Positions 57,936 through 64,000 of a stretch of 64,000 nt of DNA are shown in pieces; the first letter of the stretch is position 1, and each line of letters begins with the position of its first letter. The notes beneath the pieces are model-generated. The model saw nothing but the letters and a program-made list of their open reading frames with translations, made no database searches and had not been told where the DNA came from. Source of the DNA: Gilliamella sp. wkB7 (lineage in GTDB: Bacteria; Pseudomonadota; Gammaproteobacteria; Enterobacterales; Orbaceae). Location: NCBI RefSeq assembly GCF_001693435.1, contig NZ_CM004509.1, forward strand, positions 2,666,001 through 2,730,000. The letters are read 5' to 3'. Position numbers and translations under genes: made by a program.

Positions 57936-58928
57936 CTAAAGCAATTGTGAATAATTTTGTTTGGTTGAATCATCCCAAACGCTAGCTTGAACTTGACCAA
58001 TATGTTTTTGTTGTAGAAGTAACATAACTAGACGAGATTGACCAATTCCACCACCTATGGTTTGTAATAGTTCTCCATTGACTAAAGCTTGGTGCCAAGC
58101 AAATTGTAACCGATCTTCATCACCTGTAATTTTCAATTGACGTTTTAATGTTTCTGGGTCGACACGAATACCCATAGATGAAATTTCAAATGCGCTATTT
58201 AAAATTGGATTCCAAACTAAAATATCACCATTTAATCCTTTAGAACCCATTTCATTATCGCTACTCCAATCATCATAATCTGGAGCACGAACATCATGTT
58301 TTTCGTTATTTGCCAACTTACCGCCAATACCAATTAAAAATACAGCGCCAAGTTCCTTAGTTATCGCATTTTCACGCTCTTTAGGGGATAAATTTGGATA
58401 ACGTTTTAACAGTTGCTCACTGTCCATAAAGGTTATTGATTCAGGTAAAAAACGGGAAAGATGATATTTTTCGGATACTGCTTTTTCAGTCGCTTTAATG
58501 GCTGAATAAATTTTTTCAACCGTCTGTTTTAAATAAGTTAGATTACGATCTTCTGGTCGAATTACTTTTTCCCAATCCCATTGATCAACATAGACAGAAT
58601 GAATAGGTGATAAGCGATCTTCATCAGGACGCAATGCTTTCATGTTAGCATATAAGCCTTCACCAACAGCAAAATGGTGATCACTTAAAATTTTACGTTT
58701 CCATTTAGCGAGTGAATGCACTACCTCAAATTGGGCATCATTAATGGTTTTCACTTTAACTTGCACTGCGTTTTCAGTTCCAGATAAATTATCTTGAACA
58801 CCATCACCAACTTTACTCAGTAGAGGGGCTTGAACTTCGATTAATGATAAATTTTCCGCTAACTTATCGGCAAAAAATTGTTTTACAAAGCTAATTCGCT
58901 GCTGTTGTTCTTTAAATGATATCTGCAT
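57936..58928 (-). CDS. asnA: Aspartate-ammonia ligase
   Basis: Makes asparagine from aspartate, ammonia and ATP. The 330-residue class II tRNA-synthetase-like enzyme equals E. coli AsnA. It shows [66 protein letters not shown] and [15 protein letters not shown] dispersed GTTTCAG-pair element lies about 145 bp upstream of its start, next to the CRISPR leader. Confidence 0.96.
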
Positions 58929-59073: not shown

Positions 59074-59117
59074 TTTTGTCAAAAAGTTTCAGGTTAACCA
59101 TACGTTTCAGTATAAAA
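59074..59117 (+). repeat. Dispersed GTTTCAG-pair element, copy 2
   Basis: Begins TTTTGTC, carries two GTTTCAG heptamers 18 bp apart and ends TATAAAA. It lies at the outer end of the first CRISPR leader copy and upstream of asnA. Confidence 0.65.
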
Positions 59118-59606
59118 GATAAATAAATAATCTAAATTAATTTTATGTTTATAAAAAAATATAATATTGAGCCAATATAAGTATTTACTTTTAAAACAGT
59201 ATAATAAATTCCAAATAACCGCGCTTATAAAATTATTTTCATTCAAAAAGAATATATTGGATCACTCAAAATTACAGAAATGCACTTACTAAAAAAACAC
59301 TACTTGAGTTTAATTTGTAAAAATTTTATAACTAAGCTACACATGCAAACAACTATAAAAATAGAGTCATTTTGATAACAACAAATCATTAAAAATAGAA
59401 CAATAAAAATTCCTATTTTTAACTACATGAAAAATATATATTTATTGGTAGAATTCCGTAGAATCGAAATTTAATTTCCATTAATTTTAATTAATCAAAT
59501 AAAAACAGTGTGTTATAAATACAGATTTTAATAAAAAATAGCCTAAAAAATCGGTAGAAATTTGGTGGTCAATATTTTAATTATAAAACAGTATGTTATA
59601 ATTGGT
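59074..59606 (+). repeat. CRISPR leader, copy 1
   Basis: This 533-bp AT-rich leader abuts the first repeat of array 1 and is matched in length and order by 62172-62703. The inner block of about 395 bp (from 59212) is nearly identical between copies; the outer 138 bp has diverged apart from the GTTTCAG element. A TCAA-N4-TTA sequence (59569-59579), 27 bp before the repeat, resembles an IHF site, consistent with type I-E adaptation. No gene is seen in the leader. Confidence 0.8.
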
Positions 59607-60062
59607 CTGTTCCCTGTACACACAGGGATAAACCGCTAAACAATTTGATGAACCAATCACAATTGCACTGTTCCCTGTACACACAGGGATAAACCGGTAT
59701 GATGGTGGATCACGTTGTAGATTATATCCTGTTCCCTGTACACACAGGGATAAACCGCTCTAGGTAAACCTATCGTCATTACATCTGGACTGTTCCCTGT
59801 ACACACAGGGATAAACCGCAACGTAGTTATCAATGAAAATTGTCAGATACCTGTTCCCTGTACACACAGGGATAAACCGCCAAATTTCCTATTTCGTCGG
59901 TAGTCACGCCGCTGTTTCCTGTACACACAGGGATAAACCGGCATTGATTTGTGTTTGCCTTTCTTGCCTTTTCTGTTCCCTGTACACACAGGGATAAACC
60001 GATTTGCGTGATGAGTTGTATCAATTACTGATTGTGTTCCCTGTATACACAGGTATTAATCA
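59607..60062 (+). CRISPR. CRISPR array 1, type I-E-like, 8 repeats and 7 spacers
   Basis: The 29-bp repeats begin CTGTTCCC, contain the palindrome CCCTGT-ACAC-ACAGGG and end ATAAACCG, matching the type I-E repeat plan. Starts are 59607, 59668, 59729, 59790, 59851, 59912, 59973 and 60034. All seven spacers are exactly 32 bp. Repeat 6 has one C to T change. The last repeat (60034) is degenerate at both ends (GTGTTCC..., ...AGGTATTAATCA), marking the leader-distal end. Transcription is therefore rightward from the leader. No cas gene is in the window. Confidence 0.97.
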
Positions 60063-60380
60063 ATAGTAGACATGAATTTTAACTCTACTCAGTTACAGTT
60101 GTTTAGTATTTATAAACAAACCTTAGCCACTGTCATCGACCAGTTGAATAATTTGCGAGAAAAAAACAGAATCGCCAGTGTTAAAACGGTTATGCTTTAT
60201 TGCTATTACAGAATTACAGAGTGCGCAAATGTGATTCGTCAAATCTTTTACTTTCTCAGATATCCGTTCATAACCAAATATCTATTTACATTCATTAACC
60301 TAAAAAATAGGATTTATATAGTTATATTGTATAAAATATTTCCATATTAAAAATGGATATAAAGCACTTGAGAATATAGC
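60063..60380. other. Region between array 1 and the PAAR gene
   Basis: An open frame at 60072-60350 could encode 92 residues but has no ribosome binding site and no recognisable domain, so I do not call it a gene. It might be a remnant of an earlier cassette gene. The promoter of the PAAR operon is expected just before 60381. Confidence 0.35.
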
Positions 60381-60977
60381 ATGATTAAACAAATAGCTGT
60401 ATTGGGAGATATAACTAATTATGGTGGTAGGATTATTACAGCCTCAGGGAATGGTTATTGTGGTATTGATGGTGTCGCCTTATTGGGCGATTTAGCATCT
60501 TGCCCTAAATGTAGAAGCACAGGAAGGATCATAGAGGGGGCAAGTAATTTTATTATTGACGGAAAACCTGTTGCTTATGATGGTTGTATTATTGCGTGTA
60601 AATGCACTCCAGTTGGTGGTCATAGAATCATTGCATTAAAAAGTACTATGTATATTAATATCTCTAATAATAGTCTATCGAATTCATCTCAATCAAATTC
60701 CATTATAAATAAACAAGAAATCAACCAAAAAAAAGCTGATAACTGGATTGGATTTCAAATAGCTTCAAATAGAGATTATTCTGGTTTAAACTTCATTGTT
60801 ACTTTAAATAATGGTCAATTATTAAAAGGAACTTTTGATCAAAATAATAAAGCAAGACTAACTATTGATACACAATGTGATAGTGCAAGAATAGAGATAG
60901 AAAGCTTAGAGAATTTAGGGGATGATAATAATATATCAAGCATAACTGAAAATTTATTAAAAACAATAATAGGTTGA
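60381..60977 (+). CDS. PAAR-domain protein with probable TTR-like adaptor
   Basis: A 198-residue protein. Residues 1 to about 90 form a PAAR domain, the metal-tipped cone that caps the VgrG spike of type VI secretion. Its pattern starts with GDITNYGGRIITASGN and includes CPKC, IDGKPVAYDGCIIACKC and GGHRII. After a Ser/Asn linker, residues 120-175 (GLNFIVTLNNGQLLKGTFD) resemble the transthyretin-like adaptor that loads cargo effectors. The stop overlaps the next open frame; the effector start is 6 bp later. T6SS structural genes are not in the window. Confidence 0.85.
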   Translation: MIKQIAVLGDITNYGGRIITASGNGYCGIDGVALLGDLASCPKCRSTGRIIEGASNFIIDGKPVAYDGCIIACKCTPVGGHRIIALKSTMYINISNNSLSNSSQSNSIINKQEINQKKADNWIGFQIASNRDYSGLNFIVTLNNGQLLKGTFDQNNKARLTIDTQCDSARIEIESLENLGDDNNISSITENLLKTIIG

Positions 60978-60982
60978 TAATT

Positions 60983-61771
60983 ATGGTGGTTACACTTATG
61001 GTGGGAGGTCAATTTCCTACGGAAACTGACAATTTAATCGAAGATCCAAATCAAATATTAGACAATGCTTTGTTTGCACTGAATGATACTGCAATGAAAT
61101 TTGCAAAAGATGCAATCAGCGATGCAAAAGTAAGAGAGAGTTATATAAGTAATATAAAAAGAATTAGTGTAGAAATAAAAGGATTAGTTGACGCGAAGAA
61201 AGTATCAGTGAAAGAGGCTGCTACATTTTGTTACGAAATGAGAAATCAAATTATGGCAGAGCATAGAAAATACACATCAGCTTATGGATTAGCGAGAGCA
61301 GAAAAATATAAATCAGGACCTAAGACACATGAATATTATTTAAATAAATATTCACAGCTAAGATTCAAATTAAACTTTAAAGATCTTTCACCTAAACAAA
61401 AAAATATCATATATTATGAAACAATTAGCTCTTCTGGTCGTGATAATAAAGACTATACAACAAAAAATAAACGATTAAAAATTATAGGTAAAGTTGGTAT
61501 TTTAGTGACGGCATCACTTGCTACCTATGAGATTATTAATGCTGAAAATAAACCGAAAGAAACTATAAAGCAAGGAATGGGAATTGGAGGAGCGATGGCA
61601 GGAGGCTGGTTGGCAGGGTTAGGTGCATCAACAATATGTGGTCCAGGTGCTCCATTTTGTGCTATTGCTGTTGTTTTAGCTGGCAGTATTGGAGGATCGA
61701 TGATTGGTTCAGCAGTTGCAGATAGCCTTGATGATGAAATAGAGGAGTTTACAAAGTGGAACATACGTTAA
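60983..61771 (+). CDS. Probable T6SS cargo effector with glycine-rich membrane domain
   Basis: A 262-residue protein of unknown family. The first 160 residues are polar and helical. The C-terminal part has a hydrophobic helix (about 166-185, IGKVGILVTASLATYEII) and two glycine-zipper segments (about 199-215 and 225-246, GGAMAGGWLAGLGA and AVVLAGSIGGSMIGSAVAD) around GPGAPFC. This layout recurs in membrane-depolarising cargo effectors. The ATG at 60983 has AGGT upstream. Position between PAAR and a small acidic protein supports an effector; the mode of action is inferred. Confidence 0.7.
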   Translation: MVVTLMVGGQFPTETDNLIEDPNQILDNALFALNDTAMKFAKDAISDAKVRESYISNIKRISVEIKGLVDAKKVSVKEAATFCYEMRNQIMAEHRKYTSAYGLARAEKYKSGPKTHEYYLNKYSQLRFKLNFKDLSPKQKNIIYYETISSSGRDNKDYTTKNKRLKIIGKVGILVTASLATYEIINAENKPKETIKQGMGIGGAMAGGWLAGLGASTICGPGAPFCAIAVVLAGSIGGSMIGSAVADSLDDEIEEFTKWNIR

Positions 61772-62100
61772 ATGAAGAAGATCTTTATATTGCTCTTTCA
61801 GATCTATTTGTTGATAATGAAGTCGATTATAACCATATTGCTTCAGTAGCAAAATTATTTCCAATATCCTATGTTGAGCATGCTTTATTTAATTATGTCG
61901 CACCTTATTGTTACCACAATGCGCTCACACCTGTTCCATCTGTCTGCTACTTTTTTGATGAAGATGAGTTATTGAGTGCAATTGATGATATCAAAAAAAA
62001 AGAAAATCGCCCAATAAGTAAAATCAAGATGCGTATTTTGGCTTTTTATCTTAAGTTTAGATTTAAATATGCATGGCAAAAATTAAAAAGCTTATTATGA
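61756..62100 (+). CDS. DUF7079-like probable immunity protein
   Basis: A 114-residue protein whose first 60 residues (EEDLYIALSDLFVDNEVDYNHIASVAKLFPIS, then NYVAPYCYHNAL) match the DUF7079 pattern I recall: ALS.LFLD.E and a later EVAP.C..NL. The C terminus is basic. The start is GTG at 61756 with GAGGAG upstream, 16 bp inside the effector gene, so the two are translationally coupled as expected for an effector and its immunity protein. Confidence 0.7.
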   Translation: MEHTLNEEDLYIALSDLFVDNEVDYNHIASVAKLFPISYVEHALFNYVAPYCYHNALTPVPSVCYFFDEDELLSAIDDIKKKENRPISKIKMRILAFYLKFRFKYAWQKLKSLL

Positions 62101-62145
62101 TTATTATCGTTTTAAAATCTTATTTGAATCAAATTGATAATATGA

Positions 62146-62172
62146 GTTTTCTATAAACACAGGGACAAAACT
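62146..62172 (+). repeat. Degenerate CRISPR-repeat relic
   Basis: A 27-bp stretch aligns without gaps to the repeat (from GTTCCC onward) with about 20 matches, including CACAGGGA followed by AAA. It sits immediately before the second leader copy. It could be the eroded last repeat of an earlier array. Confidence 0.5.
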
Positions 62173-62215
62173 TTGTCAAAAAGTTTCAGGTTAGCTATAC
62201 GTTTCAGTATAAAAA
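62172..62215 (+). repeat. Dispersed GTTTCAG-pair element, copy 3
   Basis: Begins TTTGTC and carries the two GTTTCAG heptamers 18 bp apart. It differs from copy 2 mainly in the middle (TTAGCTATAC versus TTAACCATAC). It marks the outer end of leader copy 2. Confidence 0.65.
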
Positions 62216-62703
62216 TCAATAAATAATTTATTTTAAATCTATGATTATAGACAAAATACCATGTTGAGCTGACATAAAGTTTTATTTTTAATATTGAGTA
62301 ATAGATCACAAATAACAGCGCTTATAAAATTATTTTCATTCAAAAAGAATATATTGGATCACTCAAAATTACAGAAATGCACTTACTAAAAAAACACTAC
62401 TTGAGTTTAATTTGTAAAAATTTTATAACTAAGCTACACATGCAAACAACTATAAAAATAGAGTCATTTTGATAACAACAAATCATTAAAAATAGAACAA
62501 TAAAAATTCCTATTTTTAACTACATGAAAAATATAAATTTATTGGTAGAATTCCGTAGAATCTAATTTTAATTTCCATCAATTCTAATTAATTAAATAAA
62601 AACAGTGCGTTATTAATACCGATTTTAATAAAAAATAGCCTAAAAAATTGGTAGAAATTTGGTGGTCAATATTTTAATTATAAAACAGTATGTTATAATT
62701 GGT
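62172..62703 (+). repeat. CRISPR leader, copy 2
   Basis: A 532-bp copy of the leader at 59074-59606 in direct orientation, nearly identical over the last 394 bp, including the IHF-like TCAA-N4-TTA and the TATAAT next to the first repeat. The region from the immunity gene to array 2 holds no other gene. Confidence 0.8.
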
Positions 62704-62976
62704 CTGTTCCCTGTACACACAGGGATAAACCGTCCCACCAGTGTTTGCGGATTATTGACGTGTTCTGTTCCCTGTACACACAGGGATAAACCGGAGGGCG
62801 AGCGATTTATCGCAGTAGATACTGGCTGTTCCCTGTACACACAGGGATAAACCGCTAAAAAATTGGTGGCTGAAAAATTAAACGATCTGTTCCCTGTACA
62901 CACAGGGATAAACCGGCAGAACTAGACACAGAAGCAATCAGTGGATAGCGTTCCCTGTATGCACAGGGATAAATCA
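62704..62976 (+). CRISPR. CRISPR array 2, type I-E-like, 5 repeats and 4 spacers
   Basis: The same 29-bp repeat as array 1 starts at 62704, 62765, 62826, 62887 and 62948, with four 32-bp spacers. The first four repeats are identical. The last is degenerate (GCGTTCCC..., TATGCACAGGG, AAATCA) but differs from the last repeat of array 1. Orientation is the same as array 1. No spacer is shared between arrays, and I saw no match to other sequence in the window. Confidence 0.97.
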
Positions 62977-63403: not shown

Positions 63404-64000
63404 AATGAAAAATTTAATTGCAATTTCAATATTAACTTTGATCGGTTTCAACGCTTTTGCTAATGATAATGCAAAAAAATTTACTGAGTTACTTATAAAT
63501 GAAGATATTGCTGTTTTTAGAACAAACGGTGAATCAATTATTGGTGAAAAAATACCAATCGTATCGGTATCAGATCTTAGCAAAGAATTCAGTAATGATT
63601 TGACTAAATACGACAAAACATACGATCAACAGTTAGTGAATATTATAACAGAAACATCAGAAGTAAAAACGGATTTAAATGGTAATCCATATATTGTTGC
63701 AAATGGTGATAATCAATCTGAATTGGTTTCTATTGAATTAAAAAATAAAGATGATGCAGTGAACATCAAAAAGGGAAGTAAACTTGACTTGATCTGTCTG
63801 GGTACAAAAGACAATGTTAAATTTCCGGTTTTAAAGGATTGTGTAGCTACTGACAGTTACTTTCAGAAGTTTCTTGAAATCACAATGAATAATATAAGCC
63901 AACTAAAAGACGGGGACGTTCCAAAAGATTTTTTTGAAGCGATTTACCTGAGTTTTAAAGAATTTGATATTAAAAATCCTAACCAATTAGATGAAAAAAA
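63404..64000 (+). CDS. Secreted protein, OB-fold (tRNA_anti-like) candidate, 3' partial
   Basis: The frame is open from the ATG at 63404 to the window edge, 199 codons without a stop. The N terminus is a Sec signal (MKNLIAISILTLIGFNAFA, cut before ND). Residues about 70-135 (YDKTYDQQLVNIITETSEV, GNPYIVANGDNQ, IKKGSKLDLICLGT, VLKDCVAT) resemble the OB-fold tRNA_anti-like pattern with two cysteines. GGAAG lies six bases upstream of TAAGGA-ATG. Function unknown; the C terminus is not in the window. Confidence 0.7.

What the first reader, a model, noticed from the sequence alone, without database searches (positions are those of the whole stretch)
59074..62976. T6SS effector cassette enclosed by two CRISPR arrays with duplicated leaders
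Two same-orientation type I-E-like arrays, each with its own copy of a leader of about 530 bp, flank a PAAR, effector and immunity cassette. The repeated unit is 3.1 kb (59607 to 62704 first repeats). Recombination between the two leaders would remove array 1 and the whole cassette and leave one intact leader-array. The locus could therefore act as a gain/loss platform for interbacterial weapons, or the cassette may have arrived by recombination at a CRISPR locus. The layout is read directly; the exchange model is inference.
Basis: partly seen in the sequence, partly recalled or inferred. Interest (0 to 1): 0.75.

Follow-up and report, generated by a model that had tools for sequence, protein, structure and literature searches.

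The report
CRISPR arrays trading phage weapon genes
In what looks like a bee-gut bacterium, small gene cassettes for fighting other bacteria and probably phages sit between repeated CRISPR memory arrays, and comparison of related species suggests that these arrays serve as joints at which cassettes are gained, lost and swapped, partly with phages.

Summary
Confirmed: two same-strand type I-E arrays (8 and 5 repeats), each behind a 532-bp upstream copy (92% identical), enclose PAAR, an unknown 265-aa protein and a DUF7079 protein. The "530-bp leader" is composite: three other arrays share only the last ~190 bp. The rest resembles the downstream flank of DUF7079 genes and begins with a dispersed 44-bp element.
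At a second site three species carry zero, one and two PAAR cassettes; at this site a sister species keeps three DUF7079 genes after losing PAAR and most of the effector. The two window leaders share a 218-bp identical tract (0 of 20,000 shuffles) in otherwise diverged, mosaic sequence, so exchange between leaders has happened. In other comparisons homology switches at a CRISPR repeat.
Four of four other such cargo families of this genome recur beside the same repeats in viral contigs. One spacer matches, with AAG PAM, a viral contig carrying a related PAAR gene.
Best reading: a composite CRISPR-and-phage-cargo island remodelled by homologous recombination. No excised strain was seen; the mechanism is inferred.

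The parts
59075..59118 (+). 44-bp dispersed intergenic element, start of leader copy 1
   Evidence: (39 further genome hits)
59119..59410 (+). outer leader extension, copy 1; homologous to the flank downstream of DUF7079 genes
59221..59438 (+). 218-bp tract identical to the tract starting at 62318 in copy 2 (conversion or crossover signature)
59411..59606 (+). core leader of array 1
59607..60062 (+). CRISPR array 1, type I-E, 8 repeats (last degenerate), 7 spacers
59758..59789 (+). spacer 3 of array 1: 32 of 32 match with AAG PAM to a viral contig carrying a PAAR-effector gene
60381..60977 (+). PAAR protein with C-terminal extension (198 aa)
   Evidence: PF05488 above cut-off
60974..61771 (+). 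putative T6SS effector, 265 aa, glycine-rich C-terminus; homologues lie downstream of PAAR or VgrG in most loci where the upstream gene was scanned
61756..62100 (+). DUF7079 protein (114 aa), putative immunity protein, 16-nt overlap with the effector gene
62144..62172 (+). degenerate repeat-like remnant (8 of 29 mismatches) before leader copy 2
62172..62507 (+). 44-bp element and outer leader extension, copy 2
62508..62703 (+). core leader of array 2
62704..62976 (+). CRISPR array 2, 5 repeats (last degenerate), 4 spacers
63405..64000 (+). 230-aa secreted OB-fold-like protein (runs past the window end), phage-type cargo gene between array 2 and the next repeats
57936..58928 (-). asnA, left flank of the island (site marker used across species)

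Best explanation
The locus is one segment of a composite CRISPR island between asnA and a dehydrogenase-like gene. A typical unit is leader, type I-E array, cargo gene(s) on the same strand, then one or two terminal repeats. Here the cargo is a T6SS module: PAAR tip, a putative membrane-acting effector and its DUF7079 immunity protein. Units are gained, lost, duplicated and swapped by homologous recombination that uses the long leader copies at one end and CRISPR repeats at the other. The same cargo families, several beside the same repeats, occur in viral contigs, so the island and the phage cargo ('moron') pool exchange genes, while the arrays keep working as ordinary anti-phage memory. Shown: architecture, differences between species, the mosaic leader tract, breakpoints at repeats, copies in viral contigs, a PAM-correct spacer match. 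Inferred: RecA-type recombination as the mechanism, direction of transfer, effector toxicity, and any benefit from keeping cargo next to arrays.
For: Presence/absence: site B has 0 PAAR cassettes in G000, 1 in G034, 2 in G001; asnA site. Leader exchange: 218 identical columns, 0 of 20,000 shuffles; in the first 110 columns copy 1 is less like copy 2 (75%) than like any of four G001 copies (79-81%), in columns 110-350 it equals copy 2 (rounded 100%) and is 69-86% to the G001 copies. Breakpoints at repeats: G024 vs G008, 98% identity from the terminal repeat on, 4-9 of 20 positions per block before it; one unit at two sites of G024, 83.7% over 1328 bp from leader to terminal repeat; a repeat-to-repeat block G000/G001, 82.6% over 1353 bp; three G001 units with the same repeat/effector-remnant junction. 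G001 DUF7079 genes intact, dN/dS to the window copy 0.07, 0.15, 0.47. Layout in 17 of 45 arrays, 31 of 31 ORFs on the array strand. Viral contigs. Spacer match.
Against: No within-species comparison and no excised product. Only 5 of 85 PAAR hits lie in arrays, in three genomes, so the PAAR part may be local chance. No spacers are shared between the arrays flanking the cassette or among the G000 and G001 arrays, so any array duplication is old or followed by spacer turnover. Core leaders of site B resemble each other across species (90-96%), so exchange is mostly local, not genome-wide. 28 of 45 arrays lack the array-gene-repeat layout. The window's three-gene cassette also lives without these repeats in other bacteria and viral contigs. 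[quoted passage not shown]
Confidence: 0.6

Rival explanations
1. Prophage decay: temperate phages or satellites carrying the cargo genes (and sometimes their own mini-arrays) integrated near arrays and decayed. What is left looks like cargo between arrays, and the arrays play no active part.
For: Several cargo families are phage-type; a related PAAR effector of this genome sits beside an integrase (L146; L164 by eye); the window's effector type lies on three viral contigs; a phage tape-measure end remains between repeats in L160.
Against: Breakpoints coincide with repeats in several comparisons; the same unit sits at two sites of one genome; 31 of 31 ORFs share the array strand; leaders are mosaic.
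Confidence: 0.25
2. Neutral tandem duplication: unequal crossing-over between duplicated leaders enlarges and shrinks the locus, without any link between arrays and the kind of cargo.
For: Three of the four core leaders at the asnA site of G001 are 92-93% alike (the fourth 88-91%), as tandem units would be.
Against: The same cargo families occur next to repeats at other sites and in viral contigs; the G001 DUF7079 genes are under purifying selection.
Confidence: 0.12
3. Giant spacers: Cas1-Cas2 or a variant inserted gene-length phage fragments between repeats.
For: In L220 a ~1.1-kb piece with a phage-family lipoprotein gene lies directly between two good repeats inside one array.
Against: Cargo sits at the trailer end, often after a degenerate terminal repeat, whereas new spacers enter at the leader (recalled); outer leader sequence travels with units.
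Confidence: 0.03

Closest known systems
Virus-borne mini-CRISPR arrays and single repeat units (PMC6858448 and PMC11656645, passages seen)
   Same: Viral contigs here carry 1-8 repeats of the host type, and host spacers match related phages with a PAM.
   Different: PMC6858448 says of an earlier survey that its phage mini-arrays lack leaders; 9 of 19 viral stretches here (some the same contig or near-copies, one match only 21 nt) show leader-like sequence. Several sit beside secreted cargo genes, and homologous cargo lies between chromosomal arrays.
Polymorphic T6SS effector-immunity loci of bee gut bacteria (PMC5727410 and PMC8125069, passages seen)
   Same: Horizontally exchanged T6SS toxin and immunity genes, orphan remnants, recombination.
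   Different: The passages treat Rhs and VgrG loci; the word CRISPR occurs 0 times in both main texts. Here a PAAR module is enclosed by CRISPR arrays.
Vibrio cholerae island with CRISPR-Cas and T6SS modules (PMC5109276, search listing only)
   Same: CRISPR and T6SS genes on one island.
   Different: By its title a site-specific island with CRISPR-Cas; here arrays without cas genes punctuate the cargo, and none of the six island ORFs is an integrase.
Integrons (recalled)
   Same: A platform that collects small same-strand gene cassettes at repeats.
   Different: No integrase among the island ORFs; joints are CRISPR leaders and repeats. attC sites were not searched for.

Membership tests
Type I-E CRISPR array | 29-bp repeats with 32-33-nt spacers | tested here: met
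   302 of 304 spacers of the loci are 32 or 33 nt; the window's are 32 nt
Type I-E CRISPR array | I-E cas genes in the genome | tested here: met
   Cas8e, Cas11e, Cas7e, Cas5e, Cas6e, Cas1e, Cas2e; a cas3 frame of 909 aa about 9 kb beyond cas8e
Type I-E CRISPR array | protospacers with AAG PAM (PAM recalled for type I-E) | tested here: met
   window spacer 3: 32 of 32 with AAG; of 27 spacers with a listed match outside arrays 14 have AAG, of 9 with at least 30 nt and at most 2 mismatches 7
T6SS PAAR effector-immunity module | PAAR domain and a T6SS in the genome | tested here: met
   PF05488; PF05936, T6SS_VasE (TssK, recalled), at 2545141
T6SS PAAR effector-immunity module | effector toxicity neutralised by the immunity protein | not testable with these tools
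   only gene order, the 16-nt overlap and orphan retention
Phage-borne mini-CRISPR array | array lies within a phage genome | tested here: not met
   six ORFs of at least 70 aa between asnA and the dehydrogenase gene; none is a phage structural gene by Pfam, though the 230-aa protein is phage-type
Integron or site-specific island | integrase or transposase in the island | tested here: not met
   none among the same six ORFs by Pfam; the sister G001 has transposase-like ORFs in its island (by eye)

The most novel reading that the evidence does not exclude
CRISPR leader-array units act as mobile cassette carriers: leader, array, cargo and terminal repeat move as one unit between temperate phages and several chromosomal sites, coupling adaptive immunity with superinfection-exclusion-like genes and T6SS weapons, so that a cell inherits memory, phage exclusion and bacterial weapons together.
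Probability: 0.4. Interest if true: 0.87.

Novelty: new variant of a known kind. Interest (0 to 1): 0.7.

Why it matters
CRISPR arrays are normally viewed as stores of spacers. Here they also mark the joints of a gene-exchange platform whose cargo is linked to conflict with phages and with other bacteria. It gives a testable route by which phage cargo and T6SS modules enter and leave chromosomes, an example of effector loss with immunity retention, and a link between phage-borne mini-arrays and chromosomal arrays. It also suggests a role for DUF7079 as immunity protein of an effector family without a Pfam model.

Tried and rejected
Genome-wide PAAR-CRISPR linkage: rejected. Of 85 PAAR hits 5 lie inside arrays (G000 1, G001 3, G034 1). 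75 further stretches were fetched around PAAR hits and 4 around DUF7079 hits (about 6 kb each side, some cut by contig ends). Scanning these 79 gave repeats in 2 (L151, L160); a third (L161) has a single weaker repeat with a leader. One weak PAAR hit, G023:C33, was not covered.

Homogenisation of leaders between all sites of a genome: rejected; site B leaders group across species. The core-leader tree had one supported fork, the two window leaders (97/95).

Spacer sharing as proof of array duplication: none among the G000 and G001 arrays; identical spacers occurred only within G008.

Effector fold: low-confidence model (mean pLDDT 48.5), no fold search made with it. DUF7079 model (82.9): best PDB match E 4.2. 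Protein queries for the 230-aa cargo protein and for DUF7079 in viral contigs found none, yet homologues are there (56% in L245; 46-53% in L288-L290): such queries reach close relatives only. The effector in the phage collection: none.

The 196-aa gene after the array at 2826 kb (L032) was left out of the four cargo families because no repeat follows it; it had no hit in the viral stretches.

Strain-level comparison: not possible, one genome per species is held. The organism's name was not obtained; Gilliamella is an inference from family members and gene content.
Full report
What is there. The window holds two type I-E arrays on the + strand, 59607-60062 (8 repeats) and 62704-62976 (5 repeats), each preceded by a copy of a 532-bp stretch. 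Between them lie PAAR (198 aa), a 265-aa protein without Pfam family and a DUF7079 protein of 114 aa. The genome (2.9 Mb, one contig) has 40 repeats at up to 3 mismatches, 0 with the pattern reversed. It has a I-E cas operon with Cas8e, 11e, 7e, 5e, 6e, 1e and 2e near 1.19 Mb, a cas3 frame about 9 kb beyond cas8e and a T6SS marker at 2.545 Mb. The genus set held 35 genomes.

The leader is composite. Three arrays elsewhere in this genome share only the last ~190 bp (87-88%). The first 44 bp is a dispersed element (39 of the 45 hits are this piece elsewhere). The ~290 bp between recurs in G001 at four places upstream of leaders, three of them directly downstream of DUF7079 genes, and in part at two places of G001's site B. 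The locus continues beyond the window: array 2, a 230-aa secreted protein, two repeats, leader, array 3, a 168-aa lipoprotein-like gene, two repeats, then a dehydrogenase-like gene.

Comparison across species. asnA was found in 32 of 35 genomes; 31 were looked at (G033 not fetched; four stretches were short). The dehydrogenase gene lies near asnA in 10: with repeats in G000, G001, G024 and G029, without in G005, G015, G020, G025, G032 and G034; in G015 and G020 no ORF of 70 aa lies between. The other 21 have other neighbours in the stretch shown. G029 has the 230-aa gene and one repeat but no array or PAAR. G024 has the 230-aa homologue, a leader-array, a lipoprotein gene and one repeat. The sister G001 (asnA 98%) has about 19 kb there with four core leaders, arrays, one PAAR effector and three DUF7079 genes. 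At a second site ('site B', 977 kb) G000 has leader-array and no cassette, G034 one PAAR cassette between arrays (no leader detected before the second), G001 two PAAR cassettes between three leader-arrays. These are between-species differences; no strain comparison was possible.

Effector loss with immunity retention. In G001 three DUF7079 genes at the asnA site each begin after a short remnant of the effector gene's 3' end that abuts a CRISPR repeat at the same junction (two of the three remnants also found). PAAR and most of the effector are missing there. The DUF7079 frames are intact (114, 114, 111 aa), dN/dS against the window copy 0.07, 0.15 and 0.47. One deletion followed by copying of the unit explains this; it is inference.

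Exchange between leaders. The two window copies share 218 identical columns (59221-59438 and from 62318), with 79% identity before and 94% after; 0 of 20,000 column shuffles gave such a run. In the first 110 columns compared copy 1 is less like copy 2 (75%) than like any of four G001 copies (79-81%), while copy 2 is nearest G001_b (88%). In columns 110-350 copy 1 equals copy 2 and both are 69-86% to the G001 copies. A constraint on function does not explain the tract, because other copies differ there by 14-31%. Gene conversion or crossing-over between the leaders does.

Repeats as joints. G024 and G008 are 98% identical from the terminal repeat outward, with no alignable sequence immediately upstream: one has a lipoprotein gene before the repeat, the other the array itself. 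Within G024 the unit leader, array, lipoprotein gene, terminal repeat occurs at two sites, 83.7% identical over 1328 bp. G000 and G001 share a block running from repeat to repeat around the 230-aa gene. In 42 loci given to, 17 of 45 arrays of at least 3 repeats are followed within 3.5 kb by ORFs and then a same-strand repeat; these come from six genomes. All 31 ORFs (70 aa or more, overlapping shorter ones dropped) lie on the array's strand. Some rows are orthologous or paralogous, the loci were picked by leader, asnA, PAAR or cargo hits, and 28 of 45 arrays do not show the layout. The 230-aa protein has 11 copies in the genus; 6 have a repeat within 0.6 kb, but four of these are the asnA site, so three independent sites. 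A seventh (G020) has a repeat at about 1.8 kb.

Phage connection. The repeat pattern occurs in 19 stretches of 18 viral contigs, some near-copies of each other. 9 of 19 show leader-like sequence beside the repeats, one match only 21 nt. Ten neighbouring proteins from six stretches were scanned: tape-measure, minor tail, baseplate or virion structural families came up for 9, the tenth hit only families of unknown function. The four other cargo families between arrays of this genome recur there beside repeats (local blastp identity): the 230-aa protein (56%, L245), the lipoprotein (69 and 52%, L238), the 223-aa protein (65%, L238) and the 158-aa protein (80%, L229; 48%, L239/L243). The 230-aa protein matches a phage family of unknown function and, weakly, a superinfection-exclusion family (E 0.0054). 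In L160 a tape-measure end and a cargo gene lie between repeats. In G024 (L220) a ~1.1-kb piece with a lipoprotein gene of a phage family lies between two repeats inside one array. PAAR effectors of a related type (397-418 aa) lie on six viral contigs, in the one scanned between endolysin and terminase genes (L256). The window's own effector type lies on three further viral contigs (58-59%), each followed by DUF7079 and none with these repeats, and in another genus of the family the three-gene cassette lies beside an integrase and a tail-assembly family (L186).

Spacers. Of 424 unique spacers blasted against the held loci, 27 gave 45 alignments outside arrays; 24 of 45 alignments and 14 of 27 spacers have AAG at the PAM position. 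Of the 9 spacers with at least 30 nt and at most 2 mismatches 7 have AAG. Window spacer 3 matches 32 of 32 with AAG in the endolysin gene of a viral contig that also carries a PAAR effector (L250/L256), and with 1-2 mismatches over 29-30 nt in G020 and G015. The viral loci were fetched because they carry repeats or PAAR, so no enrichment is claimed. None of the 45 lies in a PAAR, effector or immunity-type gene.

The cassette. Homologues of the 265-aa protein occur in Frischella, Xenorhabdus, Providencia, Pseudomonas, Moellerella and a MAG. Upstream genes scanned: PAAR in the window and L175, L177, L178, L186; VgrG families in L179, L180, L181; nothing in L176. L182, L183 and L189 showed no such gene by the searches made. 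DUF7079 overlaps the effector gene by 16 nt in 13 of 13 loci where both frames were read, some being the same sequence twice; in L181 and L189 no DUF7079 was seen and in L182 the effector frame was not called. The effector has weak phage hits (tail-associated lysin, E 1.2e-6), over its C-terminal part. The glycine-rich C-terminus suggests a membrane target; this is inference, as the model is poor.

Literature. Eight searches showed, in the rows listed, no paper that by title or abstract start describes gene cassettes between CRISPR arrays; several lists were capped, and the library lacks most subscription journals. [quoted passage not shown] the latter says of an earlier survey that its phage mini-arrays lack leaders. 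Passages on Gilliamella phages and prophages (PMC12586679, PMC10259446) did not mention such arrays; the former says that Frischella lacks CRISPR systems.

Verdict. The exchange idea is supported between species and by the leader mosaic, but the system is broader: islands of leader-array units with phage-type and T6SS cargo. The mechanism (homologous recombination) and the benefit are inferred.

Noticed in passing
window 59075-59118 and 62172-62214: A 44-bp dispersed intergenic element; 39 of the 45 hits are further copies in the genome. Function unknown.
   Followed up: partly
L031 9715-9747 (genome 2731715-2731747): The leader-distal spacer of array 3 has 24 nt identical to a site found in all 35 genomes of the genus including the own one, a tRNA-Met gene in the two such loci checked; perhaps a phage attachment site or a self-matching spacer.
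   Followed up: partly
L034 and G000:C1:1207123: cas3 lies apart from the rest of the I-E cas operon; the distance from the nearby array to the cas3 match is 15.7-15.9 kb in G000, G001 and G008.
   Followed up: no
G027:C1:154247-157740 and 190791-194312: Four PAAR-effector genes with identical scores in two pairs, suggesting a recent duplication.
   Followed up: no
L237 9344-10435 and L242 11828-12919: A viral contig ORF 37% similar (local blastp) to Cas8e (Cse1) near CRISPR repeats and tail genes; possibly a phage-borne Cas8-like protein.
   Followed up: no
L238 6176-8128: A 650-aa ORF in the phage tail region between two leader-repeat sites, near lipoprotein cargo; by eye ATPase-like, unidentified.
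   Followed up: no
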